From the NCBI GenBank assembly GCA_005503065.1, contig SCOE01000013.1, positions 1 through 64,000 on the forward strand: a stretch of 64,000 nt of DNA, in the 5' to 3' direction. The notes under the pieces were generated by a model, which saw nothing but the letters and a program-made list of their open reading frames with translations, was not told where the DNA came from and made no database searches. This document shows, one piece after another, positions 651-63,487 of this stretch. This stretch comes from Comamonadaceae bacterium ALPHA2B (GTDB lineage Bacteria > Pseudomonadota > Gammaproteobacteria > Burkholderiales > Burkholderiaceae_C). The position numbers and the translations under genes were made by a program. Numbering within the stretch: position 1 is the first letter of the stretch; every line of letters starts with the position of its first letter.

Positions 651-704
651 GCTATTGAATTGATAGCAATCTGCGCAGCACGGACGGGCGCTGCACGCCG
701 ATTT
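651..704 (-). repeat. Dispersed GCTATC repeat, copy 1
   Basis: This copy has the 17-nt stem-loop GCTATTGAATTGATAGC at its left end and the GC-rich arm with GACGGGCGCTGCA and CCGATTT to the right, so it is in minus orientation. It lies between convergent genes ending at 631 and 774, directly before a terminator hairpin. See the finding on the repeat family. Confidence 0.8.
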
Positions 705-724
705 CCTTCTGATGTGTGCGCAAG

Positions 725-753
725 AAAAAGCCGACCCGAGGGTCGGCTTTTTC
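725..753. terminator. Bidirectional intrinsic terminator
   Basis: AAAAAGCCGACC and GGTCGGCTTTTT form a GC-rich stem with a 4-nt loop, with an A-run on one side and a T-run on the other. It can therefore end transcripts of both the YXWGXW gene and the convergent ECF operon. Confidence 0.85.
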
Positions 754-773
754 ATGGCCCATGCGGGCCCGAT

Positions 774-1163
774 TCAGGGACGCGCCACCTTCCAGGCGCC
801 TTGCAGCATGCCGTCGCCGGTGCGGTCGCCGGCCTTGGCGTCCTTGGCCCAGTAATACAGCGGCTGGCCCTTGTAGGCCCACTGCTTCTTGCCGTCGTCA
901 CGCACCACGACCGAATAGCCCCCCATGGGCTTGGCCGCCTCGGGCGCCATCAGCGGCGGCCAGTTGGTGGCGCACTGCGCATTGCAGACCGACTTGCCGC
1001 TGCCGGCGGTGTCGCGTGCGAAGGTGTAGAGCGTCATGCCGGTCGGGCCGATGAGCACGCCGTCGACGGTGCGGGTCGGCGTGTCGGGGGCGGGCGAGCC
1101 CGACATGCTGCCGCAGCCGGCGAGCAGGGCGGCCGCGAGGATCGAAGCACTGAGCAGTTTCAT
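774..1163 (-). CDS. Lipoprotein of the COG4315 secreted-repeat family
   Basis: A 129-residue protein with a lipoprotein signal (MKLLSASILAAALLAGCG; lipobox LAGC, Cys at residue 17). Two copies of the Yx(F/W)xxD-type repeat follow: one around TLYTFARDTAGSGKSVCNAQC (residues 45-65) and a second around PLYYWAKDAKAGD near the C-terminus. This matches the COG4315 family of small lipoproteins of unknown function. It is the last gene of a minus-strand run with an ECF sigma factor and an anti-sigma factor, 65 bp behind the latter, so it is a plausible target of that sigma factor. The start is the ATG with a GGAG-like ribosome site upstream. Confidence 0.85.
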   Translation of the reverse strand: MKLLSASILAAALLAGCGSMSGSPAPDTPTRTVDGVLIGPTGMTLYTFARDTAGSGKSVCNAQCATNWPPLMAPEAAKPMGGYSVVVRDDGKKQWAYKGQPLYYWAKDAKAGDRTGDGMLQGAWKVARP

Positions 1164-1228
1164 TGGATTTTCTCCTTGGTTGAACAAAGGGCAGGGCAGT
1201 GTAGGCCGCCGGTGGAGGCGGCCCGTGG

Positions 1229-1966
1229 TCATAGCTGGCGGTACACCTCGGTCGCGAGAGACAGCAGGGCGTCGCGCGGCAAGGGTGCACTCAGCGCGTA
1301 GCCGAAGCCGCGGTCGACCCAATAGAAGCTCGACACCGCGTTCGACGACGCGAAGCGTAAGGCTGTTTCCGAGCTGGCGGAGGCGGCCGGTGCGGCCTTG
1401 TCGTCCAACGCGCCGAGATACAGCGTCACCCGCTGTCCGGCTGCGTTCTCGAACATGAACTGTGCCCGCGCCCCATCGTCGCCCGGCAGCAGACGGCCGC
1501 CGACGAGCGCGTAGCCCTGCGCCGACAGATCGGGCACCTTGAGCGGACGGTCGAGCCGGCGCGACAGCCATTGCACCAGGTGCTGCTGCTCGCTGGCGGC
1601 CACCTCGACGGGGTGCCGCTTCTCGGGCGAATAGACCACGTAGGCCGAGGCCGCCTCGCGCACGAAATTCTGCGCCGCCGGCGCCCGTGCCATGGCCGTC
1701 GCCGGGCGCGCCTGCCACTGTCCGTTGGCAACCCAGCCGACACCGAAGGCGAGCAGCACGGCCGCGGCCATGCCGCTCCAAGTCGCCCAGCGGGCGCGAC
1801 GGTCGATCGTCGCCCGGCGGCGGGCGAGACGCCCGGCGGCGGCCTGCAGGGCCGGCGGCACGGGCTCGGCCAGCACCTCGCGGTGAAGCCCGCGCAGCGC
1901 CTCGCGCTGGGTGGCCCAGTCGTCAGGCTCGGTCGGCGTGTCGGGGGGCAGGGATGGGGTGCTCAT
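1229..1966 (-). CDS. Membrane anti-sigma factor
   Basis: A 245-residue protein with a cytoplasmic N-terminal part (about 1-60, Asp/Glu-rich then Arg-rich), one transmembrane segment (about 62-80) and a periplasmic domain containing YVVYSPEKRHPVEV and a KVPDLSAQGYALVGGRLLPG block. These are the marks of the COG5662 transmembrane anti-sigma factors. No zinc-binding HxxxCxxC motif is present. It starts at ATG 1966, 10 bp after the sigma-factor stop, and a TTG two codons earlier is less likely. It presumably binds the ECF sigma factor encoded just upstream and releases it on an envelope or oxidative signal. Confidence 0.85.
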   Translation of the reverse strand: MSTPSLPPDTPTEPDDWATQREALRGLHREVLAEPVPPALQAAAGRLARRRATIDRRARWATWSGMAAAVLLAFGVGWVANGQWQARPATAMARAPAAQNFVREAASAYVVYSPEKRHPVEVAASEQQHLVQWLSRRLDRPLKVPDLSAQGYALVGGRLLPGDDGARAQFMFENAAGQRVTLYLGALDDKAAPAASASSETALRFASSNAVSSFYWVDRGFGYALSAPLPRDALLSLATEVYRQL

Positions 1967-1976
1967 GGCCAACGGA

Positions 1977-2498
1977 TCACTTGAGGCGTCGCAGTGGGGC
2001 GCGGGCGGGTGCAGGGGCCGGGCCCGCGCCCTCCATCAGCTGGCGCAACCGGCTGCGAGCGCGCGACAGGCGCGACATCACGGTGCCGGCCGGCACGCCG
2101 AGGATGCGCGCGACCTCGTCGTAGGAAAGGTCTTCGAGCGCCACCAGCAGCAGCACTGCCCGCTGCTCGTCGGGCAACTGGAGCAGGCAGCGTTGCAGGT
2201 CGATCCGGCGGTCCGGCAGCGCGTCGGCGGCAGGCAGGCGCTCGGCGAGTTCGTCGACGTCCACCGAGGCGCGATGCGGCGGCGCCCGCCGGACCTGGTT
2301 GACGAAGAGGTTGTGCATCAGCGTGAACAGCCAGGCGCGCAGGTCCGTGCCCGCGCTCCACAGGCGCCACTTGTCGCAGGCGCGTTCGAGCGTGTCCTGC
2401 ACCAGGTCGTCGGCCGTCCACGCGTCGCCCGTCAGCGCGCGTGCATAGCGGCGCAGGCTGGGGATGTGGGCCACGAGGGCGGCCGTGCCGTCGGTCAT
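1977..2498 (-). CDS. ECF-type RNA polymerase sigma factor
   Basis: A 173-residue sigma-70 family protein of the extracytoplasmic-function class. Region 2 is at about 10-75 (YARALTGDAWTADDLVQDTLERA and LRAWLFTLMHNLFVNQVRR) and region 4 at about 105-160 (LPDEQRAVLLLVALEDLSYDEVARILGVPAGTVMSRLSRAR). Region 3 is absent, as expected for ECF factors. It forms an operon with the anti-sigma gene and the COG4315 lipoprotein gene. A GGAATAAA-N15-GTTCAT sequence upstream looks like an autoregulated ECF promoter. Confidence 0.92.
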   Translation of the reverse strand: MTDGTAALVAHIPSLRRYARALTGDAWTADDLVQDTLERACDKWRLWSAGTDLRAWLFTLMHNLFVNQVRRAPPHRASVDVDELAERLPAADALPDRRIDLQRCLLQLPDEQRAVLLLVALEDLSYDEVARILGVPAGTVMSRLSRARSRLRQLMEGAGPAPAPARAPLRRLK

Positions 2499-2548
2499 GC
2501 GGGTGTCGGGTTGATGGCGGCGGCGCGGGAAGCGCGCTTTCCGACTGC

Positions 2549-2577
2549 ATGAACAGCCGGGCGAGGCGCTTTATTCC
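2549..2577 (-). promoter_or_regulatory. Candidate ECF-dependent promoter
   Basis: Read on the minus strand, GGAATAAA (2577-2570) is followed after 15 bp by GTTCAT (2554-2549), about 50 bp before the sigma-factor start. A GGAA-type -35 element is typical of ECF promoters and autoregulation is common, but the match to this sigma factor is inferred. Confidence 0.4.
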
Positions 2578-2593
2578 ATGCCCGGCCAAAAAA

Positions 2594-3076
2594 TCAGCGC
2601 TGGCGGTTCTTCATCGCGCGCTCGACCTCGCGCTTGCCTTCGCGATCCTTGATGACGTCGCGCTTGTCGTGCTCCGCCTTGCCCTTGGCCAGCGCGATGT
2701 CGCACTTCACCTTGCCGGCCTTCCAGTGGAGATTGATCGGCACCAGCGTGTAGCCCTTCTGCTCGACCTTGCCGGTGAGGCGCTTGATCTGTTCCTTGTG
2801 CAGGAGCAGCTTCTTGGTCCGCACCGCATCGGGGTTGACGTGGGTGGAGGCGCTGCGCAGCGGGTTGATCTGGCACCCGATGATGAACATCTCGCCGTCA
2901 CGGATCACGACATAGCCGTCGGTGAGCTGCACCTTGCCCTCGCGCAGGGCTTTCACCTCCCAGCCCTCGAGCACCATCCCGGCCTCGAAGCGCTCCTCGA
3001 AGAAGTAGTTGAACGCGGCCTTCTTGTTGTCGGCGATGCGCGCGTTGCCGGGGGTCTCTGATTTCTTGGTGGCCAT
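2594..3076 (-). CDS. smpB: SsrA-binding protein SmpB
   Basis: A 160-residue SmpB, the tmRNA partner that delivers SsrA to stalled ribosomes for trans-translation. Visible family blocks are [20 protein letters not shown] near the N-terminus, [43 protein letters not shown] and the basic tail DRKxx-like region ending in ERAMKNRQR. The start [10 protein letters not shown] at 3076 is chosen because upstream residues (MPCAPTLTD) are not conserved and run into the divergent promoter region. It is divergent from ratA-rnfH, a common arrangement in proteobacteria. The ssrA gene itself is not in the window. Confidence 0.97.
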
Positions 3077-3104
3077 GTCTGTCAATGTTGGGGCGCATGG
3101 CATT

Positions 3105-3141
3105 CATACAATCGGCACGCACACTCGGTGCAGATTGTATG
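3105..3141. promoter_or_regulatory. Imperfect 14-bp inverted repeat over the ratA start
   Basis: CATACAATCGGCAC (3105-3118) and GTGCAGATTGTATG (3128-3141) pair over 14 bp with a single mismatch and a 9-nt loop. The right arm includes the ratA start codon and the left arm is about 30 bp from the smpB start. It could be a shared operator or an mRNA hairpin occluding ratA initiation. Confidence 0.6.
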
Positions 3142-3588
3142 AAAAGCGTCCACAAGTCCGTCCTCATCTGGTACAGCGCCGAAGAGATGTACGCGTTGGT
3201 CACGGATGTGGCCCGGTACCCGGAGTTCCTGCCCTGGTGCGACCGCGCCCGCGTGATCGAGCAGGACGAGGCCGGCATGACGGCCGAGGTCGGCCTGTCA
3301 TTCGGCGGCATCCGCCAGAGCTTCACCACGCGCAACACGCACGTGCCGGGCCGCGAGGTGCAGCTCAAGCTGGTCGACGGGCCGTTCTCGAACCTCGACG
3401 GCGTCTGGAAGTTCAATCCCGTCGGGGAGGAGGGCGAGCGCGCCTGCCGCGTCGAGCTCGACCTGCACTACGGCTTCAGCAACTTCGCGCTGCAGGCGCT
3501 CGTGGGCCCGGTGTTCGACAAGATCGCGTCGAGCCTGGTCGAAGCCTTCGTCAAGCGCGCCGAGCAGGTCTACGGCCAGCCCGCGTGA
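3139..3588 (+). CDS. ratA: RatA / COQ10-type START-domain protein
   Basis: A 149-residue single-domain protein with START/Bet v1-like features: SVLIWYSAEEMYALVTDVARYPEFLPWC at the N-terminus and a helix at the C-terminus (VGPVFDKIASSLVEAFVKRAEQVYG). It belongs to the family of E. coli RatA (YfjG), originally described as inhibiting ribosome subunit association, and of mitochondrial COQ10, which binds ubiquinone. The quinone-chaperone role is probably the more general one. MKSVHKSV is taken as start; the longer frame would read across the smpB promoter region. The downstream rnfH gene overlaps by 4 bp, so the two form an operon. Confidence 0.92.
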   Translation: MKSVHKSVLIWYSAEEMYALVTDVARYPEFLPWCDRARVIEQDEAGMTAEVGLSFGGIRQSFTTRNTHVPGREVQLKLVDGPFSNLDGVWKFNPVGEEGERACRVELDLHYGFSNFALQALVGPVFDKIASSLVEAFVKRAEQVYGQPA

Positions 3589-3917
3589 TCGAGGTCACGG
3601 TCTGCTGCGCGCCGGCGCCGCGCACGGTCTTCGAGGAGGTGCTGCAATTGCCCGCAGGCTGCACGCTGCGCGAGGCTGTCGAGGCGAGCACGCTGCAGCG
3701 GCAGCATCCACAACTGGACTGGGCGGCGCTGCAGCCCGGCTTGTGGGGACGCCCGGCCGATTGGGACAGGACGCTCGCCGCGGGCGACCGCGTGGAACTG
3801 TGCCGCCCTCTGGCCGTCGACCCCAAGGTGGCGCGTCGCGAGCGCTTCCAGCGCCAGGGCCGCCGCACGGCGGGCTTGTTCTCACGACGTCGCCAGGGCG
3901 GCAAGGCCGGCTACTGA
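3585..3917 (+). CDS. rnfH: RnfH family (RatB-like) ubiquitin-fold protein
   Basis: A 110-residue protein starting at a GTG that overlaps the ratA stop codon (GTGA). The N-terminal half (IEVTVCCAPAPRTVFEEVLQL to DRVELCRPLAVDPK) matches the beta-grasp RnfH/UPF0125 fold, with the conserved end DRVELCRPLxxDPKxxRRxR. A basic tail follows. E. coli calls the gene ratB, but it is not an antitoxin. Function is unknown, and its constant pairing with ratA suggests a shared role in quinone or electron-transport biogenesis (inference). Confidence 0.9.
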   Translation: MIEVTVCCAPAPRTVFEEVLQLPAGCTLREAVEASTLQRQHPQLDWAALQPGLWGRPADWDRTLAAGDRVELCRPLAVDPKVARRERFQRQGRRTAGLFSRRRQGGKAGY

Positions 3918-3950
3918 GCACGCAGGCCAAGAAGGCAGCAGGTGGGAATT

Positions 3951-4004
3951 GCTATCTTTCTGATAGCTGGATATGCAGGCGGGGTGTGCGCTGCGGCCGG
4001 ATTT
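3951..4004 (-). repeat. Dispersed GCTATC repeat, copy 2
   Basis: The stem-loop GCTATCTTTCTGATAGC is followed by a GC-rich arm ending in GCCGGATTT. The copy fills the gap between the convergent rnfH and DUF4124 genes. Confidence 0.75.
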
Positions 4005-4034
4005 GCTCGAAGTCGTCGTCCGGCCTCGGTCCGG

Positions 4035-4529
4035 CTACTTGCAGTCCGCGTTGATGATGTCCTGCAGCCGGCGCTGCTCGGACGCGCGGGCCTGGTCGTC
4101 CATGATCTCGCGTTCGCCCTTGTCGTTCATGCGCGCCACGCGCATGCCGCTGTCCATCGTGGCCTTGCCCTGACGCGCACGGATGCAGTTGTCGGCCTTG
4201 GCCTTGGCGATCTTCTGCTCCTCGGCGGCGCGCTTGGCCTTCTCGGCCTCCTCGGCCTTGCGGGCCTTCTCCTCGAGTTCCTTGTCGACCCCGGCTGCCT
4301 TGGGCGCGGGCGTGGCGGCAGCGTCTGCCTTGGGCGCATTGGCCGGGGGAACCGCAGTGGCCGTCCTGCCGCCCGGACGGCGCAGGACGTTCTTCTCGGG
4401 CACGTCGGCGGGCGGCGGCTGGTCGCTGAAGACCTTCTTGCCTTGGTTGTCGATCCATTGCCATTGGGCGCTGGCGGCCAGGGGCAGGGCGAGCGCGCAG
4501 GCGAGCACACAGAGAGGAGCGAACTTCAT
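4035..4529 (-). CDS. DUF4124 domain-containing exported protein
   Basis: A 164-residue protein with a signal peptide (MKFAPLCVLACALALPLAASA, cleavage near residue 21) followed at once by the DUF4124 block QWQWIDNQGKKVFSDQPPP. The middle is Ala/Pro/Lys-rich and then becomes a charged coiled-coil-like stretch (KELEEKARKAEEAEKAKRAAEEQK). The C-terminus has two cysteines (NCIRARQGK and INADCK). The family is periplasmic with no known function. The start is the ATG 4529; the 12-residue extension upstream has no signal character. Confidence 0.87.
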   Translation of the reverse strand: MKFAPLCVLACALALPLAASAQWQWIDNQGKKVFSDQPPPADVPEKNVLRRPGGRTATAVPPANAPKADAAATPAPKAAGVDKELEEKARKAEEAEKAKRAAEEQKIAKAKADNCIRARQGKATMDSGMRVARMNDKGEREIMDDQARASEQRRLQDIINADCK

Positions 4530-4671
4530 CCCGGCAGTGTAGCCCCGCCTTACGTTTGGCAACACTCGAAGCCGGCCGCGAGGGGAGGCTGACGCGCAAA
4601 ACTGCCACCAAATCGCAACGCCGGCTGCCGGACGAAGGCCCGGCGCGGCGTGGGAAAACCCGCGCCATCGT

Positions 4672-4677
4672 TACAAT
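4672..4677 (+). promoter_or_regulatory. Candidate -10 box of guaB
   Basis: TACAAT lies 22 bp upstream of the guaB ATG, leaving a very short leader that contains a TTGGAG-type ribosome site. No good TTGACA-like -35 is visible, so the promoter may depend on an activator or an extended -10. Confidence 0.4.
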
Positions 4678-4698
4678 CCGTCTTTTGGAGCTTCACCC

Positions 4699-6168
4699 AT
4701 GCGCCTTCTTGGCAAAGCGCTCACCTTCGACGACGTGTTGCTGGTGCCCGCCTTCTCCCAGGTCCTGCCCAAGGACACCTCCCTCGCCACCGCCTTCTCC
4801 CGCAACATCTCGCTCAACCTGCCCCTGGTCTCCGCGGCCATGGACACGGTGACGGAAGCGCGCCTGGCCATCGCCATCGCGCAGGAAGGCGGCATCGGGA
4901 TCGTCCACAAGAACCTCACCGCCCAGCAGCAGGCGGCCGAGGTGGCCAAGGTGAAGCGCTACGAATCCGGCGTGCTGCGCGACCCGGTCGTCATCACGCC
5001 CCAGCACACGGTGCTGCAGGTGCTGCAACTGTCGGAAGAGCTGGGCATCTCGGGCTTCCCGGTCATCGACGGCGGCAAGGTGGTGGGGATCGTGACGGGC
5101 CGCGACCTGCGCTTCGAGACGCGCTACGACGTGCCCGTGACCGAGATCATGACGCCGCGCGCCAAGCTCATCACCGTGCAGGAAGGCACCACGCCGGCAG
5201 AAGCCAAGGCCCTGCTCAACAAGCACAAGCTCGAGCGGCTGCTGGTCATCGACGGCGACTGGCGCCTCAAGGGCCTCATCACCGTCAAGGACATCACCAA
5301 ACAGACCACCTTCCCGAACGCCGCGCGCGATGGCTCGGGCCGGCTGCGCGTGGGCGCTGCGGTCGGCGTGGGTGACGGCACAGAGGAGCGCGTCGAGGCG
5401 CTGGTCAAGGCCGGTGTCGACGCGATCGTGGTCGATACCGCGCACGGCCACAGCAAGGGCGTGATCGACCGCGTCCGCTGGGTGAAGCAGAACTACCCGC
5501 AGATCGACGTCGTCGGCGGCAACATCGCCACCGGCGCCGCCGCGCTGGCGCTGGTCGAAGCCGGCGCGGATGCGGTCAAGGTCGGCATCGGCCCGGGCTC
5601 GATCTGCACCACCCGCATCGTGGCCGGCGTGGGCGTGCCGCAGATCATGGCGGTCGACAGCGTGGCCACCGCGCTGCAGGGCACGGGCGTGCCGCTCATT
5701 TCCGACGGCGGCGTGCGCTACTCGGGCGACATCGCCAAGGCGATCGCCGCGGGCGCCAGCACCGTGATGATGGGCAGCATGTTCGCCGGCACCGAAGAGG
5801 CGCCGGGCGAGATCGTGCTGTACCAGGGCCGCAGCTACAAGAGCTACCGCGGCATGGGCTCCATCGGCGCGATGCAGCAGGGCAGTGCCGACCGCTACTT
5901 CCAGGAATCGACCACCGGCAACCCCAACACCGACAAGCTGGTGCCCGAGGGCATCGAGGGTCGCGTGCCCTACAAGGGCTCCATCGTCTCGATCATCTAC
6001 CAGATGGCCGGCGGCGTGCGCGCCAGCATGGGCTATTGCGGCTGCGCCACCATCGACGACATGAAGAAAAAGGCCGAATTCGTCGAGATCACCTCGGCCG
6101 GCATCCGCGAATCGCACGTGCACGACGTGCAGATCACCAAGGAAGCGCCCAACTACCGGGCGGAGTGA
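4699..6168 (+). CDS. guaB: Inosine-5'-monophosphate dehydrogenase
   Basis: A 489-residue IMPDH, which oxidises IMP to XMP with NAD+ in the committed step of guanine nucleotide synthesis. The catalytic loop [11 protein letters not shown] places the nucleophilic Cys at residue 303. Two CBS motifs form the regulatory Bateman module at about 95-205 ([13 protein letters not shown]... and [13 protein letters not shown]). The flap and Arg-Tyr region ([22 protein letters not shown]) is present. The length is typical of bacterial IMPDH with both CBS domains. It is followed by guaA 79 bp downstream with a hairpin in the gap. Confidence 0.98.
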
Positions 6169-6182
6169 ACCCACTCCGAGGG

Positions 6183-6215
6183 CAAGGCCGGTGCTGTGCA
6201 CCGGCCTTGTTGTTT
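6183..6215 (+). terminator. Hairpin between guaB and guaA
   Basis: CAAGGCCGGTGC and GCACCGGCCTTG form a perfect 12-bp stem around a TGT triloop, followed by TTGTTT. This looks like an intrinsic terminator or attenuator, with guaA starting 33 bp later. It could reduce guaA transcription relative to guaB. Confidence 0.7.
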
Positions 6216-6247
6216 CAGCGAAGCATCCATTCCATCGAAGCGCGCCC

Positions 6248-7867: not shown

Positions 7868-7927
7868 TGGTCGGCCCATCATCCGACATTGAGGCGACCC
7901 GGGATCCTTGTGCCCCGGTCTCCTTGG

Positions 7928-18955: not shown

Positions 18956-19040
18956 GCGGTGGCGCAGGGGGCGTCGAAGACGTGGCGAACGCCCTGTGCC
19001 GCAAGCGGGCCAGCCGGCCGTCTGCCAGGGATTGCGAGCC

Positions 19041-19094
19041 TTTTCGGCCCGGAGCACCCGCCCCATGGGCACAAGATGCTATCGAATCGATAGC
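19041..19094 (+). repeat. Dispersed GCTATC repeat, copy 3
   Basis: TTTTCGGCCCGGAGCACCCG is followed by a spacer and the perfect stem-loop GCTATCGAATCGATAGC. It ends 26 bp before the histidine-kinase start and could influence its translation. Confidence 0.75.
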
Positions 19095-19120
19095 AATGGC
19101 ATTCGGCACAATGGCGCGTG

Positions 19121-22569: not shown

Positions 22570-22591
22570 GGCCGGCGTGCTGAAGTTCTTA

Positions 22592-22649
22592 GGCCAAATC
22601 GGCCTGGAGCGCCCGTCCCGCTTGCGCGTGTAGCTATCAAATCCGTAGC
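22592..22649 (+). repeat. Dispersed GCTATC repeat, copy 4
   Basis: GGCCAAATCGGCCTGGAGCG is followed by CCCGTC, a spacer and GCTATCAAATCCGTAGC. It is one of the best copies of the long arm and lies in the ankyrin-cytochrome b561 gap. Confidence 0.85.
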
Positions 22650-22738
22650 AACGGTGGGCAGAGCGGCGAGCTGCTGCTCGTGCAGCCGCGTCGCCGTCGA
22701 AGCTCGTGTTCACGCGGGTTTCCCGGGCCTCGGAAATC

Positions 22739-33451: not shown

Positions 33452-34540
33452 TCAGGGCAGCCGCGCGCGCACCGCTTCGGCCAGTGCCGTGACGCTCAGG
33501 GGCGCCGATCCTTCGGCCTTGTTGTTGATCGTCACATAAGCGGGCTGGGCAGCGCCGACCGTGCCGGCGATGACGCGGGCCAGTGCCTCGCGCGTGTCCA
33601 TGTCCGGATCGATCAGGCGGTCGAACGGCTCGTACAGACCCTTGGCCTCCTCGTAGCCGAAAGCGCCATGCTTGCGGTTCAGGTTCCAGCGGCAGACCAG
33701 CGGGCCGGGCCACAGCGCGCGCAGCAGCGGGATCTGCTCGTGGATGGGCGGCAGCTTGGGATGCAGGCCCAGGCAGTAGGTGGCGCCGGCGTCGCGCAGC
33801 ACGGCGACCAACTCGGGCGTCAGCCATTCGGGATTGCGCACTTCCACCGCCACCACGGCATCGGGCGCGGCGGGCCTGAGGGGCGGCAGGGCGCGCAGCA
33901 TGATCGCCAGGCGATCCAGCAGTTCCGGCATCCGGGCGAGGAACGCGGCGGGCAGGGGGCTGAGTTGGAACACCAGCGCGCCGATGCGTGCGCCCAGCCC
34001 CTCGATGGCCGGTGCGACGAATTGCTCCACGGCCAGGATGGGGTCCAGGAAAGCGGGATTCGGCTGCATGCCCCGGCCGTCCTCGCCGCGCACCAAGGCG
34101 TCGGCGACCAGGCTCGGTGCCTTGACCACGAAGCGGAAGTCGTCGGGCACCTGGGCGGCATAGCCGGCGAACTGGCTGGCGGTGAGCGGACGGTAGAAGC
34201 TGCGGTCCAGGCTCACGCTGCGCAGCAGGGGGTGGCGCGCATAGGCGGCCAGCCCGTGCCGCGACAGCACCGGCTGCGCGTACTCACGGTCCCAGACGAG
34301 CCCGGCCCAGCCCGGGAAGTGCCAGGACGAGGTGCCCAGGTGCAGGGCGCGGGGCAGGGCGGCAGCCAGCACTTGCAACGACTCGGGCACGGCGGCGGCC
34401 TGCACGCGCTGCGCCGTGGTGGCGGCGCGTTGCCACGCACCGGCGGCCCGCGGCCCGGGGTCCGTGGCGGGCGAGGGTGTCGGCGCGTCGTCGAAGAGGG
34501 AATCCTGGAGGCCGGGCATGCGAGCCGCATTCTCTTTCAT
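33452..34540 (-). CDS. DUF72 domain protein (YecE-like)
   Basis: A 362-residue protein of the DUF72 TIM-barrel-like family. It shows LHLGTSSWHFPGWAGLVWD, a central FRFVVKAPSLV, the FQLSPLPAAFLARMPELLDRLA segment, VAVEVRNPEWL and C-terminal TINNKAEGSAPLS. Function is unknown. A Pro/Ala-rich N-terminal 60 residues is unlike shorter homologues. The start is probably ATG 34540 (MKENAARM); ATG 34519 (MPGLQDSLF) is also possible. It ends 16 bp from the convergent MHS transporter gene. Confidence 0.88.
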   Translation of the reverse strand: MKENAARMPGLQDSLFDDAPTPSPATDPGPRAAGAWQRAATTAQRVQAAAVPESLQVLAAALPRALHLGTSSWHFPGWAGLVWDREYAQPVLSRHGLAAYARHPLLRSVSLDRSFYRPLTASQFAGYAAQVPDDFRFVVKAPSLVADALVRGEDGRGMQPNPAFLDPILAVEQFVAPAIEGLGARIGALVFQLSPLPAAFLARMPELLDRLAIMLRALPPLRPAAPDAVVAVEVRNPEWLTPELVAVLRDAGATYCLGLHPKLPPIHEQIPLLRALWPGPLVCRWNLNRKHGAFGYEEAKGLYEPFDRLIDPDMDTREALARVIAGTVGAAQPAYVTINNKAEGSAPLSVTALAEAVRARLP

Positions 34541-34724
34541 CAACAAAAGCGCCCGGAGCACCCACGCACCGTGATCCGCCTGCTATCGATATCGGAGCGG
34601 CCGCCAAGCGTTCGGCGGGGGGACAATGGCGGCACGCCACTTCGCCGCGGGCGTACCGCCATGCAGATGCCCTTGCCGTTCACGTCGCCCTCGCACTCCC
34701 TTTGCCGTACCAAGGCCTGATCGC

Positions 34725-44540: not shown

Positions 44541-44566
44541 GTTCACGGGACGGGCCTCTGTCTGCA

Positions 44567-44624
44567 TGCCAAAAAGGGCTGCAGCGCCCGTCCAGCGTGT
44601 GCGAGCAGCTATCGATTTCATAGC
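44567..44624 (+). repeat. Dispersed GCTATC repeat, copy 6
   Basis: GCCAAAAAGGGCTGCAGCG and CCCGTCCAGC lead to the stem-loop GCTATCGATTTCATAGC. A run of six T follows 7 bp later, so this copy may terminate ygfZ transcription. Confidence 0.85.
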
Positions 44625-44711
44625 GTCCAGATTTTTTCGACGCGCCTGACCCCGTTCCCGCGGCAGCGCCGTAGAACGCGCATCGACCACTCGATGCAAG
44701 AGGACAGGACC

Positions 44712-45602: not shown

Positions 45603-45615
45603 GCACTCGATGGCA

Positions 45616-45673
45616 GCCCAGATCGACCTGCAGCGCCCGTCTGGCGGGTGCCGGCAGCTATCAAAATGGGAGC
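45616..45673 (+). repeat. Dispersed GCTATC repeat, copy 7
   Basis: GCCCAGATCGACCTGCAGCG, CCCGTC and GCTATCAAAATGGGAGC. The right half of the terminal stem is eroded. It lies between two convergent stops, 4 bp from the second. Confidence 0.75.
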
Positions 45674-45677
45674 ACCC

Positions 45678-46538: not shown

Positions 46539-46656
46539 GGCGGGACCTTTCTGGCGTCTTGTCTCGGGGTCGGAAGGAAGCCGGGCGAGGATAGCCCGCG
46601 TGTGCCGCAGCGCTTGGCGCGTGGGCGTCAGGCCTTGGCACGGCCTTCGCCCTTCA

Positions 46657-46714
46657 AGCCAAATCGGCCTGAAACGCCCGCCAGACGAGGGCGGCACGCT
46701 ATGAAAATGAGAGC
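46657..46714 (+). repeat. Dispersed GCTATC repeat, copy 8
   Basis: AGCCAAATCGGCCTGAAACG followed by CCCGCC, and GCTATGAAAATGAGAGC with a decayed stem. It lies in the gap upstream of the thioesterase-GNAT gene. Confidence 0.75.
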
Positions 46715-46726
46715 GTTGGCAACCGT

Positions 46727-48886: not shown

Positions 48887-48923
48887 GCGGAAGCGCCAGC
48901 GCGCGGATGCTGCGCGTTTGAGG

Positions 48924-48980
48924 GCCCAATCGGCCTGCGACGCCCGCCCCGACTGCGAAAGCTGCTATGCATTCGATAGC
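48924..48980 (+). repeat. Dispersed GCTATC repeat, copy 9
   Basis: GCCCAATCGGCCTGCGACG, CCCGCCCCG and GCTATGCATTCGATAGC. It lies between the convergent dehydrogenase and DUF3185 genes. Confidence 0.8.
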
Positions 48981-48992
48981 GGCCGAGAAAAC

Positions 48993-51940: not shown

Positions 51941-52001
51941 CCAACAGAGCGCCTGGCTGCGGCGCCCACCAGCGGGCGCCGCAAGCTATCGATTCGATAG
52001 C
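51941..52001 (+). repeat. Dispersed GCTATC repeat, copy 10
   Basis: GCGCCTGGCTGCGGCGCCCA, then the perfect GCTATCGATTCGATAGC at its right end. The long arm differs from the consensus. It ends 4 bp from the tex stop. Confidence 0.7.
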
Positions 52002-52005
52002 AAGC

Positions 52006-54384: not shown

Positions 54385-54465
54385 GCTTTCTTCGGGTCTG
54401 CCCTGGGGAAAAGCGCGGAAGTTTGCCATAGGGCACCCGGCCCGCCGGCGGTTAGGCTCGGCGGC

Positions 54466-54945: not shown

Positions 54946-54952
54946 GCTTTTT

Positions 54953-55013
54953 GCTACGAAATTGATAGCTGCCGGCGCACGCCGGACGGGCGCTGCAGCC
55001 GCTTTTGCTTCAA
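54953..55013 (-). repeat. Dispersed GCTATC repeat, copy 11
   Basis: GCTACGAAATTGATAGC at the left, then GACGGGCGCTGCAGCCGC and TTTTGCTTCAA, i.e. minus orientation. It fills the gap between the two convergent genes and reaches the pqiC stop. Confidence 0.85.
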
Positions 55014-55618
55014 ATGCTGCACTCGGCGAGCGTGCCGGACTGCGCCGTAGCCACATGGCGGGCGATGGCCTCGGCAGCGCGCGCCGTGAGCCGCTGCGCC
55101 GCCTGGGCGAGCGCATCGATGCCGGCCCCGGCCGGTTCGCTGGCCGACCATTGGCAGGCCGCGCTCCGGTCGGCGTCGGTGCGCCGCAGGGTCCAGCTCA
55201 GGGCCGCATCGACCCGCGTGCCGTCGATGGCGTCGAACTGGCGCACCTGCACCGCGATGCGCCATGCCGGCTGGCCGGTCTGGCGGCCGCCGCGCGTCGA
55301 GTCGGCCGCGCCCAGGCGTGCGGCGACGCCGCTGGCCAGCGCGTCGCGCAGCTCGCTCTCGAACGAGGACGACCAGCGGTGCTGCTCCAGCACCTCGACC
55401 TCGGTGCTGGCGGCATCCGCCTTGCGCACCACCATCTGGGGCCGTGCCAGCCGCTCGGGCAGCGCCAGCGGGGCGAGCTCGATGAACAGCGGCGTGGCGC
55501 TGCGCGGCACCGCGGACGAGGCGCCCGGTTCGGCCAGGGTGTAGTAGCGGGTGACCGGTGTCGAGCAGGCCGCCAGCGCCGCAGCCACGGCCAGGCCGGC
55601 AAAGAGGGAAGGCTTCAT
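55010..55618 (-). CDS. pqiC: PqiC-type outer-membrane lipoprotein
   Basis: A 202-residue lipoprotein (lipobox LAAC, Cys18; MKPSLFAGLAVAAALAACS) of the ABC-transport-auxiliary/PqiC family: TRYYTLAEPG, PLALPERLARPQMVVR, HRWSSSFESELRDALASGVAARLG and a C-terminal AAQRLTARAAEAIA. In the Pqi system PqiC is the outer-membrane partner of the PqiB tube. It overlaps pqiB by 4 bp. Confidence 0.9.
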   Translation of the reverse strand: MKPSLFAGLAVAAALAACSTPVTRYYTLAEPGASSAVPRSATPLFIELAPLALPERLARPQMVVRKADAASTEVEVLEQHRWSSSFESELRDALASGVAARLGAADSTRGGRQTGQPAWRIAVQVRQFDAIDGTRVDAALSWTLRRTDADRSAACQWSASEPAGAGIDALAQAAQRLTARAAEAIARHVATAQSGTLAECSI

Positions 55619-58675: not shown

Positions 58676-58808
58676 CAAGCGGGGCGGCCCGGACGAAAAA
58701 TGCCGCCCCAGGGAGCGGCCGGCGAGCCAAAGCGCAGGACGATGGAAGCAGCGAACATTGGGTCGATTCTGCCCAAAGCCGCGCGCCGCGCTGTCGGACG
58801 GCATCGCC

Positions 58809-58866
58809 GCTATGGAATTCATAGCTGCCGGTGCCCATCCCATGGGCGCCAGGCACCGATTTGGCG
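58809..58866 (-). repeat. Dispersed GCTATC repeat, copy 12
   Basis: GCTATGGAATTCATAGC at the left, then GGGCGCC and CACCGATTTGGC, i.e. minus orientation. It is the only copy in a divergent gap, 134 bp upstream of the pqi operon start. Confidence 0.8.
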
Positions 58867-58873
58867 CAGAAAA

Positions 58874-58926
58874 AATGCAATTTTCATCCGGGTGTATTGC
58901 ATTGATCATTTAAGCCCGGGTAGAAT
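58874..58926 (+). promoter_or_regulatory. Promoter with 8-bp inverted repeat for the DUF2239 gene
   Basis: TTGCAT (58897-58902), 18-bp spacer and TAGAAT (58921-58926) form a fair sigma-70 promoter. The arms AATGCAAT (58874-58881) and ATTGCATT (58896-58903) form an inverted repeat overlapping the -35. This is a candidate operator. Confidence 0.5.
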
Positions 58927-58933
58927 TTTCGAC

Positions 58934-59512
58934 ATGACCTCCGACCTTCCTCCCGCTCCCACCCTGATCGCCTTCCTGGCGCACCGGCGCGTTGCACGCG
59001 GCCGCCGCGACGAGGTACTTGCCGCATTGCGCGCGCAGGAGGCCGGCGCAGGCTCGGTGGTGTTCGACGCCGACACCGGCGAGCGGGTCGAGCTCGATCT
59101 GCGTGCCGATGCCGGGCACACCCCCAGCGCCGAAGACGCGCCGGCACGCGGCGTGGGCCGCCCCAAGCTGGGCGTGGTGGCACGCGAGGTCACGCTGCTG
59201 CCGCGCCACTGGGACTGGCTCAGCCGGCAGCCCGGCGGCGCTTCCGTGGCGCTGCGCAGGCTGATCGACGAGGCCCGCCGCACCTATGCCGAACGCGACC
59301 AGGTGCGCGCCGCGCGCGAAGCGGCCTACGGCGTGATGAGCGTGCTGGGCAGCGAGTTGCCTGGCTTCGAGGAGGCAGCCCGTTCGCTCTTTGCGGGCGA
59401 GCGTGCGCGCTTCAACAGCTATGTGAGCGACTGGCCGGCCGACGTCGCCGATTTCGTTCGCGGCCTGGCGGCCCCCGCGTGGAACGCGCCGGCTCCCGGT
59501 TCCGATGCCTGA
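58934..59512 (+). CDS. DUF2239 family protein
   Basis: A 192-residue soluble protein. An N-terminal ILIAFLAHRRVARGRRDEVLAAL-like block and a central VGRPKLGVVAREVTLLPRHWDWLSRQPGGASVALRRLIDEARR form the DUF2239 core. The central part resembles a small DNA-binding helical unit (inference). C-terminal part is FEEAARSLFAGERARFNSYVSDWPADVADFV. An inverted repeat overlaps its promoter, so autoregulation is possible. Confidence 0.85.
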   Translation: MTSDLPPAPTLIAFLAHRRVARGRRDEVLAALRAQEAGAGSVVFDADTGERVELDLRADAGHTPSAEDAPARGVGRPKLGVVAREVTLLPRHWDWLSRQPGGASVALRRLIDEARRTYAERDQVRAAREAAYGVMSVLGSELPGFEEAARSLFAGERARFNSYVSDWPADVADFVRGLAAPAWNAPAPGSDA

Positions 59513-59641
59513 AGAATCTTCCTTTCCGATGCACGTCCTTCATCCCATCGACGGCCCCCATCGGGCCGCGCAGTCCATGCTGCGATTCGCATGCGACGCC
59601 ACCGCCCGGGCGGTGCCCGCGTGAGCGCCGGACACCTGTCC

Positions 59642-61111
59642 ATGCCCCAGCCCGAAGCCGCCCGCGTGGCGGGCGAGACGGTCGCACCGCCCGCCTCCGT
59701 CGCCGACCCGGTGCCTCCGCCCGCGACCGCGCCCGCCCCGGCGCGTGGTCGGCCGGTGGCCATCGCCGGCAACAAGCCGCTGTGGCAGACCTTCCTGTTC
59801 TTCCTGGCGCCGATGCTGCTGTCGAACATCCTGCAGTCGCTGTCGGGCACGCTCAACAACGTCTACATCGGGCAGATGATCGGCGTGCAGGCACTGGCGG
59901 CGGTGTCGGGCTTCTTCCCGGTGATGTTCTTCTTCATCGCCTTCACCATCGGCCTGGGCGGCGGCGCCTCGGTGCTGATCGGCCAGGCCTGGGGCGCACA
60001 GGACCGCGAGAAGGCCCGCGCCGTGGCCGGCACCGCGCTCACCGTGGTGGTGGCGTTCGGCCTGCTGGTCGCGCTCTTCGGCGGCATCTTCACCCAGCCC
60101 ATGCTGCATGCGCTGGGCACGCCGGCCGACATCCTGCCCGACGCCACACGCTACGCGCGCATCATCCTGATCGCGATGCCGGGGCTGTTCGTGTTCCTGC
60201 TCTCCACGGCCATGTTGCGCGGCGTGGGCGACACGATCACGCCGCTGTTCACGCTGCTGATCTCGACCGCCGTAGGCCTGGTCCTCACGCCCGCGCTCAT
60301 CCGCGGCTGGGGCGGGCTGCCGCAGATGGGCGTGGCCAGCGGCGCGTGCGCCACCGTGGTCGCCTTCGTCGTCGCCACGCTGTGGCTGGGATGGCATCTG
60401 CGCCGCAGGAAGAGCCCGCTGGCGCCCGATGCCGACTTCATGCGCCACCTGCGCATCCGGCCGCACCTGCTCAAGGCCATCCTCAAGGTCGGGGTGCCCA
60501 CGGGCGTGCAGATGATCGTGGTGGCGCTCGCCGAGCTCGTGCTGCTGGGCCTGGTCAACGGCTTCGGCTCGCATGCCACGGCGGCCTACGGCGCGGTGAA
60601 CCAGGTCGTGGCCTACGTGCAGTTCCCGGCCATCTCGATCGCGATCACCGCCTCGATCCTCGGCGCGCAGGCCATCGGTGCCGGCCGCATCGACCGCCTG
60701 GGCGCCATCACGCGCACGGCGCTGATGATGAACCTGGTGCTCACCGGCGCGCTGGTGCTGCTGGGTTACCTCTTCTCGCGCCCGCTGATGGGCTGGTTCA
60801 TCACCGACCCGGCGGTCATCGAGGTGGCGCAGCAGCTGCTGCACATCATGCTGTGGAGCCTGGTGATCTTCGGCATGGCCTCGGCACTGTCGGGGATCAT
60901 GCGCGCCAGCGGCACGGTGCTGGTGCCCACCGCCATCTCCATCTTCTGCGTGCTGTGCGTGTCGGTGCCGGTCGCCTGGGTCATGAGCCACCGCATCGGG
61001 CTGTCGGGCGTGTGGGTGGCCTACCCCGCGTCCTTCGGCAGCATGCTGCTGCTGCAGGCGGCGTACTACCGCTTCGTGTGGCGCAAGAAGGCGATCCGGC
61101 GGCTGGTGTGA
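59642..61111 (+). CDS. MATE family efflux transporter
   Basis: A 489-residue MATE transporter with 12 membrane helices in two halves (LWQTFLFFLAPMLLSNILQSLSGTLNNVYIGQMIGVQALAAVSGFFPVMF for the first, ILKVGVPTGVQMIVVALAELVLLGLVNGFG for the second). The N-terminal 45 residues are Ala/Pro-rich and variable. ATG 59642 is used; GTG 59621 and ATG 59591 are alternatives. MATE pumps export cationic drugs with Na+ or H+. The GST gene overlaps its stop. Confidence 0.93.
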   Translation: MPQPEAARVAGETVAPPASVADPVPPPATAPAPARGRPVAIAGNKPLWQTFLFFLAPMLLSNILQSLSGTLNNVYIGQMIGVQALAAVSGFFPVMFFFIAFTIGLGGGASVLIGQAWGAQDREKARAVAGTALTVVVAFGLLVALFGGIFTQPMLHALGTPADILPDATRYARIILIAMPGLFVFLLSTAMLRGVGDTITPLFTLLISTAVGLVLTPALIRGWGGLPQMGVASGACATVVAFVVATLWLGWHLRRRKSPLAPDADFMRHLRIRPHLLKAILKVGVPTGVQMIVVALAELVLLGLVNGFGSHATAAYGAVNQVVAYVQFPAISIAITASILGAQAIGAGRIDRLGAITRTALMMNLVLTGALVLLGYLFSRPLMGWFITDPAVIEVAQQLLHIMLWSLVIFGMASALSGIMRASGTVLVPTAISIFCVLCVSVPVAWVMSHRIGLSGVWVAYPASFGSMLLLQAAYYRFVWRKKAIRRLV

Positions 61112-61755
61112 GCGGCCTGCCGGTGCTCTATTCCTTCCGGCGCTGCCCGTACGCGCTGCGGGCGCGCCTGGCGCTGGCCGCGAGCGGTCAACGCTGCGAG
61201 TTGCGCGAAGTGGTGCTGCGCGACAAACCGCCCGAGCTGCTGGCCGCATCGCCCAAGGCCACCGTGCCGGTCCTGGTGCTGCCAGGCGGTGACGTGATCG
61301 AACAAAGCCTGGACATCATGCGCTGGGCGCTGCGCCGCCACGACCCCGATGGCTGGCTGGATGGCGGCGCCGACGTGACGCAGGCGCTCGTCGCGCAGTG
61401 CGATGGGCCTTTCAAGCAAGCACTGGACGCGTACAAGTACCCCGAGCGCCATCCCGACCGGCCGGCCGGGGCCGCGCAGGCCGCAGCTGCCGCGATGCTC
61501 GATGGACTCGAGGCGCGGCTGCGGGCGCACGCCTTCCTCTGTGCCGACCGGCCCCGCCTCGCCGATGCCGCGTGGATGCCCTTCGTGCGCCAGTTCGCGC
61601 AGGTGGATGCGCCGTGGTTCGCGGCCCGGCCCTGGCCACGCCTGCAGGCCTGGCTCGACGGCTGGCTGCAGGGACCGCTGTGGCCACGCGTGATGCACAA
61701 GTACGCGCGCTGGCAGGCGCCGCAGCGCGGCGTGGACTTTCCGCCCGCAGGCTGA
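61108..61755 (+). CDS. Glutathione S-transferase-like protein
   Basis: A 215-residue protein with a thioredoxin-fold N-domain (LYSFRRCPYALRARLALAASGQRCELREVVLRDKP; CPYA occupies the active-site position, and PVLVLPGGDVIEQSLDIMRWAL supplies the cis-Pro and glutathione-binding Ser) and a helical C-domain. It belongs to the glutaredoxin-2-like/GST family. A GTG start overlaps the MATE stop. Confidence 0.9.
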   Translation: MSGLPVLYSFRRCPYALRARLALAASGQRCELREVVLRDKPPELLAASPKATVPVLVLPGGDVIEQSLDIMRWALRRHDPDGWLDGGADVTQALVAQCDGPFKQALDAYKYPERHPDRPAGAAQAAAAAMLDGLEARLRAHAFLCADRPRLADAAWMPFVRQFAQVDAPWFAARPWPRLQAWLDGWLQGPLWPRVMHKYARWQAPQRGVDFPPAG

Positions 61756-61849
61756 GGCGCGCGCTGCGGCGCCCGTGTCACGCCGCGTTGCAGGCCCTGC
61801 CACGCCAGTCCTCATAATCGCCGCCTTCCGGACTTTCGAATCTGCCGCC

Positions 61850-63112
61850 ATGCCCGTCAGCCAGCTCTCGGTCTACTTCTTCCTCCAGGCGGCGGTGATC
61901 CTGCTGGTGTGCCGTGGGGTCGGCAAGCTGGCGCAGCGCATGGGCCAGCCCCAGGTGGTGGGCGAGATGATCGCGGGCGTGGCGCTCGGGCCCTCGCTCT
62001 TCGGGCTCTTCCTGCCCGAACTGCAGCAGGCGCTCTTTCCCAAGCCCACGCTGGGCATGCTCTACGTCTGCGGCCAGCTGGGCGTGGGCATGTACATGTT
62101 CCTGGTCGGCACCGAATTCAACGCCGATCACTTCAGGCGCCGCGCGCGCAGCGCCGTGTCGGTGTCGGTGGCGGGCATCGCGGTGCCGTTCTTCCTGGCC
62201 TTCCTGCTGGTCCCCTGGCTGCACGAGATGCCGGGCCTGTTCTCGCCCAAGGCCAAGGAACTCGAGGCCTCGCTCTTCCTCGGCGCGGCCATCGCTATCA
62301 CGGCCTTCCCGATGCTGGCGCGCATCATCCACGAGCGCGGCATCGCCGGCACCTCGCTGGGCACCCTGGCGCTCACGGCGGGCGCGGTGGACGACGCGGC
62401 AGCCTGGTGCATCCTCGCCGTCGTGCTGGCCAGCTTTGGCGGCAGCTGGACGGGCGCGTGGCTGGCGATCGGCGGCGGCATCGGCTATGCGCTGTTCATG
62501 CTGCTGGTCGGCCGGCGGCTGCTCGCGCGCCTGGCCGACCATGCCAAGCCCGGCGAGCCGCTGAGCGCGACGCTGCTGGCCATCGTGCTCGCCCTCTTCT
62601 GCCTGAGCGCCTGGGCCATGGATGCGATCGGCATCCATGCCGTGTTCGGCGGCTTCATCCTCGGCGCCTGCCTGCCGCGAGGGGAGTTCACCGTCCGGCT
62701 GCGCGCGCAACTGCAGCCCTTCGTGGTGGTCTTCCTGTTGCCGATGTTCTTCACCTACTCGGGACTGAACACGCAGCTCAGCATGGTCATGCAGCCGACC
62801 CTGCTGCTGGCGGCACTGGCCATCCTTGCGGCGTCCTTCGCCGGCAAGGGCATCGCCTGCTGGGCCGCGGCGCGCCTCAGCGGCGAGGACAACCGCGACG
62901 CGATGGCGATCGGCGCGCTGATGAACGCGCGCGGGCTGATGGAGCTGATCATCATCAACATCGGCCTGCAGGCCGGCGTGATCGAGCCGGGCCTGTTCGC
63001 GATCCTGGTGCTGATGGCCATCGTCACCACGCTGATGGCGACGCCGCTGTTCAACCGCGTCGTACGCAGCGGCGGCGCACAGAGCCACGCTGCGCTCGGG
63101 CGGCCGGTCTAG
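61850..63112 (+). CDS. CPA2-family cation:proton antiporter
   Basis: A 420-residue membrane antiporter of the KefB/NapA type with about 12 helices. The conserved block is LGPSLFGLFLPELQQ..., LTAGAVDDAAAWCILAVVLA (Asp-Asp transport motif) and NARGLMELIIINIGLQ. The C-terminal TrkA-N/RCK regulatory domain of KefB is absent. Start ATG 61850 (MPVSQLSVYF). Confidence 0.92.
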   Translation: MPVSQLSVYFFLQAAVILLVCRGVGKLAQRMGQPQVVGEMIAGVALGPSLFGLFLPELQQALFPKPTLGMLYVCGQLGVGMYMFLVGTEFNADHFRRRARSAVSVSVAGIAVPFFLAFLLVPWLHEMPGLFSPKAKELEASLFLGAAIAITAFPMLARIIHERGIAGTSLGTLALTAGAVDDAAAWCILAVVLASFGGSWTGAWLAIGGGIGYALFMLLVGRRLLARLADHAKPGEPLSATLLAIVLALFCLSAWAMDAIGIHAVFGGFILGACLPRGEFTVRLRAQLQPFVVVFLLPMFFTYSGLNTQLSMVMQPTLLLAALAILAASFAGKGIACWAAARLSGEDNRDAMAIGALMNARGLMELIIINIGLQAGVIEPGLFAILVLMAIVTTLMATPLFNRVVRSGGAQSHAALGRPV

Positions 63113-63216
63113 CCGGCAACAGTCTGGAACAAGTTCGTGGCCTCCCCCTCCTTCGTGAGGTTCACATTCGCGGCACTGGTTCGTTATCCTCGATACGAGG
63201 TCTGCAGGAGAAGGAT

Positions 63217-63417
63217 GTGCTGAGCTTGAGAGACATGGCGCTCACCGTGGAGGAACGAGGCGAAGGCCAGTTCTACTGGGTGGTGCTGGAGGCGACGGAA
63301 GCCGACGACGGCGACGTGATGATCTACCGCCGCATCGAGTCCGCAGCACGTGCGCAATCGACCTATTCCAACGCGCTCGCCATGGGCGTCGACGTCGTGC
63401 GTCGCCTCGCCGATTGA
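63217..63417 (+). CDS. Small conserved protein
   Basis: A 66-residue protein. AGGAG lies 6 bp before a GTG start, so the short form MLSLRDMALTVEERGEGQFYWVVLEATEADDGDVMIYRRIESA is preferred; ATG 63235 is possible. An N-terminal beta-strand pair and a C-terminal helix are likely. No function known. Confidence 0.6.
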   Translation: MLSLRDMALTVEERGEGQFYWVVLEATEADDGDVMIYRRIESAARAQSTYSNALAMGVDVVRRLAD

Positions 63418-63432
63418 CGCCAACCCTGCGGC

Positions 63433-63487
63433 GCTACTGAATCGATAGCGCCCCGCGCCCGATCCGCGGGCGTTCCACCAGGTTTTT
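63433..63487 (-). repeat. Dispersed GCTATC repeat, copy 13
   Basis: GCTACTGAATCGATAGC at the left, then CGCGGGCGTTCCACCAGG and a T-run, in minus orientation. It lies between convergent genes. Confidence 0.75.

What the first reader, a model, noticed from the sequence alone, without database searches (positions are those of the whole stretch)
651..63487. Dispersed 55-60 bp intergenic repeat with GCTATC...GATAGC stem, 13 copies
The sequence shows 13 related copies (651, 3951, 19041, 22592, 34962, 44567, 45616, 46657, 48924, 51941, 54953, 58809, 63433). The pattern is AATCGGCCTG-N-AGCGCCCG-spacer-GCTATC-N5-GATAGC. Spacing between the two blocks is nearly constant and both orientations occur. Twelve of 13 are strictly intergenic. 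Six lie between convergent genes, and six of the thirteen convergent gaps in the window hold one. Stem pairs change together in some copies (e.g. GCTATCGAATCGATAGC, GCTATTGAATTGATAGC), which suggests selection on the structure. I know of no named family for it. It could be a REP-like element, a MITE-like remnant, a transcription-end signal or a protein-binding site.
Basis: partly seen in the sequence, partly recalled or inferred. Interest (0 to 1): 0.78.

Follow-up and report, generated by a model that had tools for sequence, protein, structure and literature searches.

The report
REP-like tagged repeats in Comamonadaceae genomes
A bacterium of the family Comamonadaceae carries many copies of a short DNA repeat, mostly just behind genes, that looks like a relative of the known REP repeats and is probably tied to a resident transposase-like enzyme; its key bases are kept in one sister species and largely lost in another.

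Summary
The 13 copies are real, plus a weak 14th at 34536-34601. In 864 kb of the same genome (a Xenophilus relative) a gapless profile finds 114 copies, none in reversed sequence. They favour gene 3' ends (25 of 55 convergent gaps, 5 of 110 divergent); 26 of 114 lie inside predicted genes.

Anatomy: a GC-rich imperfect stem beside two inverted RTAG tags (GCTAT-N7-ATAGC), the layout of GTAG-type REPs. A RAYT-like HUH gene, near-universal in the family, carries the tag at a fixed distance before its 3' terminal repeat mainly in element-rich genomes (pattern present: 23 of 27 element-rich; absent: 45 of 223).

Orthologous copies in one sister species keep the tag arms (233 of 240 bases; near flanks 83%). 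In another, tag bases T38/A50 are lost in 36 of 48 cases, far above nearby A/T sites.

Best reading: a new REP-like family, RAYT-linked, now immobile, tags under selection. Against: RAYT catalytic residues do not track element presence, copies are never paired, the RAYT gene is not flanked by two REPs, no fresh insertion was seen. Host function unproven.

The parts
648..713 (-). element copy, convergent gap
   Evidence: R1 61.7 bits; genes
3948..4012 (-). element copy, convergent gap
   Evidence: R1 44.4 bits; genes
19032..19097 (+). element copy, co-directional gap
   Evidence: R1 46.9 bits; genes
22587..22652 (+). element copy, co-directional gap
   Evidence: R1 70.9 bits; genes
   Evidence: R1 24.4 bits, E 6e-6; profile 35.4 bits
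34954..35019 (+). element copy, co-directional gap
   Evidence: R1 57.3 bits; genes
44562..44627 (+). element copy, co-directional gap
   Evidence: R1 72.5 bits; genes
45611..45676 (+). element copy, convergent gap
   Evidence: R1 51.7 bits; genes
46652..46717 (+). element copy, co-directional gap (both genes on the - strand)
   Evidence: R1 55.0 bits; genes
48918..48983 (+). element copy, convergent gap
   Evidence: R1 52.0 bits; genes
51953..52004 (+). element copy with an indel in the left half; tags GCTAT/ATAGC intact; co-directional gap
   Evidence: R1 38.2 bits, model 14-66; exact P2 match
54950..55015 (-). element copy, convergent gap, best in window
   Evidence: R1 77.6 bits; genes
58806..58871 (-). 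element copy, divergent gap
   Evidence: R1 46.6 bits; genes
63430..63495 (-). element copy, convergent gap
   Evidence: R1 45.3 bits; genes

Best explanation
The repeats are a family of REP-like elements of the GTAG kind in Comamonadaceae. They most likely spread long ago as whole units of about 55-66 bp as substrates of the resident RAYT-like HUH endonuclease, whose own 3' end carries the same tag. In single-stranded DNA (replication) the stem-loop would be bound and the strand cut at C|T beside the tag (C37|T38 on one strand, the mirrored site on the other). In this genome the copies are now inherited in place and I saw none jumping; the tag bases are still kept by selection, so the sites are probably still used. 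SHOWN: copy number, 3'-end placement, tag plus stem layout, the tag at the RAYT end and its association with element-rich genomes, constraint on the tags in one species pair, concentrated tag loss in another species. INFERRED: that RAYT binds and cuts these copies, that they spread by its action, and that retained copies serve the cell (candidate: a processed or bound site that separates neighbouring transcription units).
For: 114 copies in 864 kb, control 0. Convergent, co-directional and divergent gaps of at least 60 bp with a copy: 25/55, 57/273, 5/110, chi-square p 3e-9. Bottom-strand fold: the four tag bases paired in 2-31% of copies, P1 arm bases in 48-88%. RAYT-like gene in 237 of 250 family genomes; NF047646 E 5e-20, though 71.9 bits is under the cut-off of 80. 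GCTAY 15-19 nt before TGTCCC (one mismatch allowed) 3' of the RAYT gene: 32 of 55 element-rich against 2 of 51 element-poor genomes; genera of uniform state 20/31 against 1/28, p 5e-7, five mixed genera left out; with exact TGTCCC 30 of 55 against 1 of 51. Unselected test, pattern GCTAYN6TGATNTGTCCC in 250 genomes: 27 genomes, one hit each, 1 control hit in all; 23 of the 27 are element-rich (at least 5 of at most 20 scored hits) against 45 of the 223 others, p 3e-11; 23 of 27 hits lie within 150 nt of the RAYT gene. G000 against G010: tag arms 233/240 identical, P1 arms 83-89%, near flanks 81-84%; 97/100 in intragenic and 140/144 in intergenic copies. G008: T38/A50 changed 36/48 against 31/97 at the other A/T arm columns (p 1e-6) and 80/271 at near-flank A/T sites (p 5e-9); of 23 copies readable at both, 2 keep both. 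Published: TnpA-REP cuts at C|T, and changes of the third or fourth tag base abolished cutting by the S. maltophilia enzyme (PMC8266576, passages).
Against: Intact HUH plus Tyr residues: 51 of 55 element-rich and 48 of 51 element-poor genomes, p 1; G005, G050, G157 and G170 count as element-rich with broken RAYTs. Two element-rich genomes, G070 and G192 (70-74% complete), gave no RAYT match. 23 of 55 element-rich genomes lack the tag at the RAYT end. The RAYT gene has terminal repeats of the TIRYT kind, no full REP on both sides; no tag excess at its 5' end. The tag at the RAYT end could be one ancestral copy fused there; 10 of 32 such flanks keep a P1-like arm. The P1 unit is only modestly more stable than shuffles (mean z -1.43). 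REPs usually pair or cluster; here no two copies are closer than 418 bp and they are over-dispersed. No fresh copies: best pair 83% identical, and 24 of 24 mappable G010 copies are shared with G000.
Confidence: 0.58

Rival explanations
1. Binding site of a different DNA-binding protein (nucleoid, uptake-signal or road-block type) that recognises the palindrome GCTAT-N7-ATAGC; the RAYT end merely carries an old fused copy.
For: Arms conserved as letters without covariation; copies behave nearly like independent draws from column frequencies, apart from coupled neighbouring columns; over-dispersed spacing, 11 neighbours under 2 kb against 24 expected; constraint also in intragenic copies; element presence does not follow RAYT catalytic integrity.
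Against: The palindrome hardly occurs without the left half: 53 of 54 exact GCTAT-N7-ATAGC matches lie in profile copies and the 54th is the indel copy at 51953, so sites did not arise by point mutation of the palindrome alone. Tag letters match the REP tag, and the tag at the RAYT end associates with element-rich genomes.
Confidence: 0.25
2. RNA-level element in 3' UTRs: terminator or mRNA-stabilising stem-loop.
For: 3'-end location, median 14-22 nt behind the upstream stop codon in co-directional gaps; P2 alone more stable than mononucleotide shuffles, mean z -3.3.
Against: No covariation; no T-run directly behind either stem; equal orientation 30 versus 27 and 26 of 114 inside predicted genes; the window copy at 648-713 has a terminator-like hairpin with a T-run next to it in the same gap (about 725-750).
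Confidence: 0.09
3. Purely decaying relics of an old burst with no present role.
For: No fresh insertions seen, low pairwise identity (mean 0.58), four element-sized shorter gaps in G242, graded scores in G008.
Against: Tag arms differ in 7 of 240 bases where near flanks differ in about 17%; loss in G008 is focused on T38/A50, which neutral decay does not predict.
Confidence: 0.06

Closest known systems
GTAG-type REPs and their RAYTs (Nunvar 2010 PMC2817692, passages; Di Nocera 2013 PMC3733652, abstract and sections 15-16; Corneloup 2021 PMC8266576, passages)
   Same: Unpaired GTAG-like tag beside a stem-loop, hundreds of copies, 3'-end and convergent-gap preference, some intragenic copies, a HUH/Tyr RAYT-like gene in the genome bearing the tag at one end.
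   Different: Tag mostly ATAG; second inverted tag lacks its own stem; no dimers or clusters; RAYT flanked by other terminal repeats; copies highly diverged and not seen turning over.
TIRYT genes with GGGGWSAS terminal repeats (Di Nocera 2013, section 16)
   Same: The RAYT-like gene here has a GGGGTCAGA-like motif on the 5' side in 47 of 106 loci and exact TGTCCC within 130 nt on the 3' side in 93 of 106.
   Different: The dispersed repeat is not the terminal repeat itself but shares the GCTAY-N-GAT stretch next to it.
REPIN (Bertels and Rainey 2011 PMC3116915, passages)
   Same: Inverted tags within one unit, linked to a RAYT.
   Different: Only one stem-loop per unit; no near-identical copies.
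BRE, Beta-proteobacterial repeat element (Hot 2011 PMC3110155, section 14 and passages)
   Same: Intergenic repeat also reported from Comamonadaceae.

Membership tests
GTAG-type REP | Unpaired GTAG-like tag at one end of a stem-loop | tested here: met
   Bottom-strand fold: tag bases paired in 2-31% of copies, P1 arm bases in 48-88%, mean z only -1.43; columns 48-49 are AT/GT/GG in 72/20/14 of 114 copies, before a conserved AG
GTAG-type REP | High copy number, mainly extragenic, at gene 3' ends | tested here: met
   114 in 864 kb; gap classes 25/55, 57/273, 5/110; 26/114 inside predicted genes
GTAG-type REP | RAYT gene flanked by two inverted REPs | tested here: not met
   Tag at the 3' side in 32 of 55 element-rich genomes; a tag within 60 nt of the 5' repeat in 3 of the 27 element-rich genomes that have that repeat, 1 of 20 element-poor
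GTAG-type REP | Cut by its RAYT at C|T next to the tag | not testable with these tools
   needs protein; only the T38/A50 footprint in G008
REPIN | Two inverted REPs, each with a stem, as the unit | tested here: not met
   One stem plus two tags
TIRYT | RAYT-like gene between GGGGWSAS terminal repeats | tested here: met
   GGGGTCAGA-like motif 5' in 47 of 106 loci, exact TGTCCC 3' in 93 of 106; both ends not scored together
RAYT protein (NF047646) | Score above the curated cut-off | tested here: not met
   70.7-75.1 bits against 80, E 1e-19 to 5e-21, three proteins
BRE | Sequence similarity to the Bordetella repeat | not tested
BRE | Tandem arrays at some loci | tested here: not met
   smallest distance between copies 418 bp in 864 kb
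Intrinsic terminator | Stem followed directly by a U-tract | tested here: not met
   columns 53-59 hold no T-run; on the other strand a short T-rich stretch starts about 10 columns past the P1 stem
Structured RNA | Compensatory base-pair changes | tested here: not met
   no Rfam match at gathering score in the window

The most novel reading that the evidence does not exclude
A REP/RAYT system turned into a fixed chromosomal site set: about one site per 7.6 kb, spaced more evenly than chance, mostly behind genes, immobile, with cleavage tags under purifying selection in some species; in a sister species the tag base needed for cutting is destroyed at nearly every mapped site (21 of 23), as if cutting had become harmful or the partner function had been lost.
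Probability: 0.35. Interest if true: 0.82.

Novelty: new variant of a known kind. Interest (0 to 1): 0.62.

Why it matters
Whether RAYTs and REPs do something for the cell is a long-standing question. Here are sister species in which the same sites are either kept or lost at the presumed cutting base, so the question becomes testable with genomes at hand and one simple cleavage assay. It would also give a describable repeat family to many Comamonadaceae genomes, where such copies could be mistaken for terminators or small RNAs.

Tried and rejected
Stem covariation: rejected. RAYT catalytic integrity as the determinant of element presence: suggested by 20 genomes, rejected with 106. RAYT presence as determinant: rejected, matches in 237 of 250 genomes, and G070 and G192 (incomplete) are element-rich without one. 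Element-poor genomes simply carrying class B instead: not supported, none found in the G008, G001 and G005 stretches. Fresh insertions with target duplications between G000 and G010: none seen; the 3 G000 copies without a G010 partner look like deletions or are ambiguous. G150/G242: of 8 G150 copies above 25 bits 7 mapped; four gaps are shorter in G242 by about 47-74 nt (insertion or clean loss, direction unresolved), one equal, two longer. Motif letters in papers: 46 papers hold one of four 11-mers, 25 listed, none relevant by title. Literature searches for a described Comamonadaceae REP family: plus term look-ups inside PMC3733652, PMC6006769 and PMC2817692: none found in this open-access library. 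Exact pattern in genome contigs: 7 stretches, incl. Xenophilus, Comamonas granuli and Diaphorobacter nitroreducens.

Limits: gene calls come from my own script (a first version was wrong and dropped). The profile was trained on the sequence it scans. The 864 kb are the window plus parts of three large contigs (C11, C22, C44) picked. Hit counts are capped (130 and 20 candidates scored per genome), and one search used stricter filters. The 106 RAYT loci were not drawn at random: 16 of the 20 (G019, a fragmentary match, left out; three more replaced by loci), the 30 best and 60 chosen by me; one search is the unselected test. Constraint counts use the C22 stretch only: 41 copies, 28 mapped to G010 and 29 to G008; 26 and 27 have at most 60 unaligned flank bases; one search keeps the 24 G010 pairs with an element. 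Copies were picked for their score in G000, which raises apparent conservation; P1 columns picked the same way do not show it. Fisher tests are not corrected for phylogeny beyond the genus collapse. Shuffles are mononucleotide.
Full report
What was claimed and what holds. The 13 copies exist where stated, and a 14th weak one lies at 34536-34601. The 19-base left block with up to two mismatches occurs 209 times in the 6.0-Mb genome, 0 times in the backward control. A gapless 74-column profile finds 114 copies above 25 bits in 864 kb, none in reversed sequence, about one per 7.6 kb; extrapolated, some 790 per genome. Over 864 kb a copy lies in 25 of 55 convergent, 57 of 273 co-directional and 5 of 110 divergent gaps of at least 60 bp, and 26 of 114 lie inside predicted genes. 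In co-directional gaps both orientations are about equally common (30 and 27), close to the upstream stop codon. The covariation claim fails.

Anatomy. With the first A of AATCGG as column 0, stem P1 has arms at 12-18 and 24-30; then come GCTAT (36-40), seven bases and ATAGC (48-52). The halves hardly occur alone; the three best left-only hits belong to a related class with another right palindrome. On the bottom strand a copy reads RTAG, then a stem-loop; the tag stays mostly unpaired in DNA folds, and the stem is modestly more stable than shuffles (mean z -1.43). Between genomes the inner P1 arms differ and look palindromic by eye (CTTG/CAAG in G149, CCCG/CGGG in G000), while no pairing excess exists within a genome.

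Age and turnover. Copies look nearly like independent draws from the column frequencies (mean identity 0.584, simulated 0.588; best pair 0.83, simulated 0.79), apart from coupled neighbouring columns, so there are no recent duplicates among these 114. Of 28 G000 copies mappable to G010, 25 have a copy at the same place and strand; all 24 mappable G010 copies exist in G000. Copies are more evenly spaced than a one-per-gap model: 11 neighbours under 2 kb, expected 24.0 with SD 3.8.

Distribution. The model finds copies in 89 of 250 family genomes and 58 of 141 genera, and in none of 16 genomes of other families of the order. Within the genus, of 15 species, six are element-rich, one has 12 hits and eight have 0-2. 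The genome is 90-94% identical to Xenophilus sp. E41 over one 8-kb stretch; Xenophilus belongs to Comamonadaceae.

Constraint on the tags. Between G000 and G010 the tag arms are 97% identical (233/240), the near flanks 81-84%, the P1 arms 83-89%. In G008 the tag arms fall to 68% (164/241), below the near flanks (77-79%). The loss is concentrated at T38 (19 of 23) and A50 (17 of 25), against 31 of 97 at the other A/T arm columns and 80 of 271 at near-flank A/T sites. T38 and A50 are the third base of the RTAG tag on either strand, and each is also the T of a C|T step on one strand. In published work TnpA-REP cuts at C|T, and a change of the third or fourth tag base abolished cutting by the S. 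maltophilia enzyme (PMC8266576, passages seen). G008 keeps GCTAT at its own RAYT end. A selected loss of cuttable sites, or repeated damage there, would explain this; neither is proven.

The RAYT link. Of 23 genomes tested, 22 carry one Y1-type gene, and 237 of 250 in the family match the G000 protein. It matches NF047646 below its cut-off. Its catalytic residues do not separate element-rich from element-poor genomes, and two incomplete element-rich genomes show no match, so the simple idea that an active RAYT maintains the repeats is not supported. But its 3' end carries GCTAY at a nearly fixed distance before TGTCCC in 32 of 55 element-rich and 2 of 51 element-poor genomes (30 and 1 with exact TGTCCC). 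The unselected pattern scan gave 27 of 250 genomes, 23 of them element-rich; 23 of the 27 hits lie within 150 nt of the listed RAYT gene, 22 of these in element-rich genomes. Either the tag belongs to the RAYT unit and matches its substrates, or an ancient copy fused there and is kept under the same constraint.

Verdict. I file it as REP-like and RAYT-linked, a new variant. By layout and placement it resembles a REP; membership is incomplete because the RAYT gene is not flanked by two REPs and cutting is untested.

Noticed in passing
L011:8522-8590 (+); also L009, L014, L022, L033, L041: A related, rarer palindromic repeat (class B) shares the left half AAGTGCAATCGGCCTGCAGCGCCCG but ends in TCGTCACG-NN-CGTGACGA; a handful of copies in 864 kb, one clear in the G010 stretch, none in the G008, G001 and G005 stretches.
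   Followed up: partly
L034:3732-3819, L034:4172-4252, L034:4504-4628: Three other repeats recur in the genus; the first also in element-poor species at about 76-82% identity, the third matches on both strands.
   Followed up: no
L318 (G050), L306 (G170), L311 (G157): RAYT-like genes with lost HUH or tyrosine residues but still open, in element-rich genomes: possible non-catalytic retained proteins.
   Followed up: no
L056 (G004), L109 (G076): One strong copy each in otherwise element-poor genomes (2 and 1 hits), perhaps horizontal transfer from element-rich relatives.
   Followed up: no
window about 725-750: Terminator-like hairpin with T-run (AAAAAGCCGACCC-GA-GGGTCGGCTTT) in the same convergent gap as the copy at 648-713.
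   Followed up: no
element columns 25-26 in 114 G000 copies: Two main states GG (47) and CT (45) decide whether P1 is a fuller or broken palindrome; strongly coupled (0.80 bits, null maximum 0.22), cause unknown.
   Followed up: no
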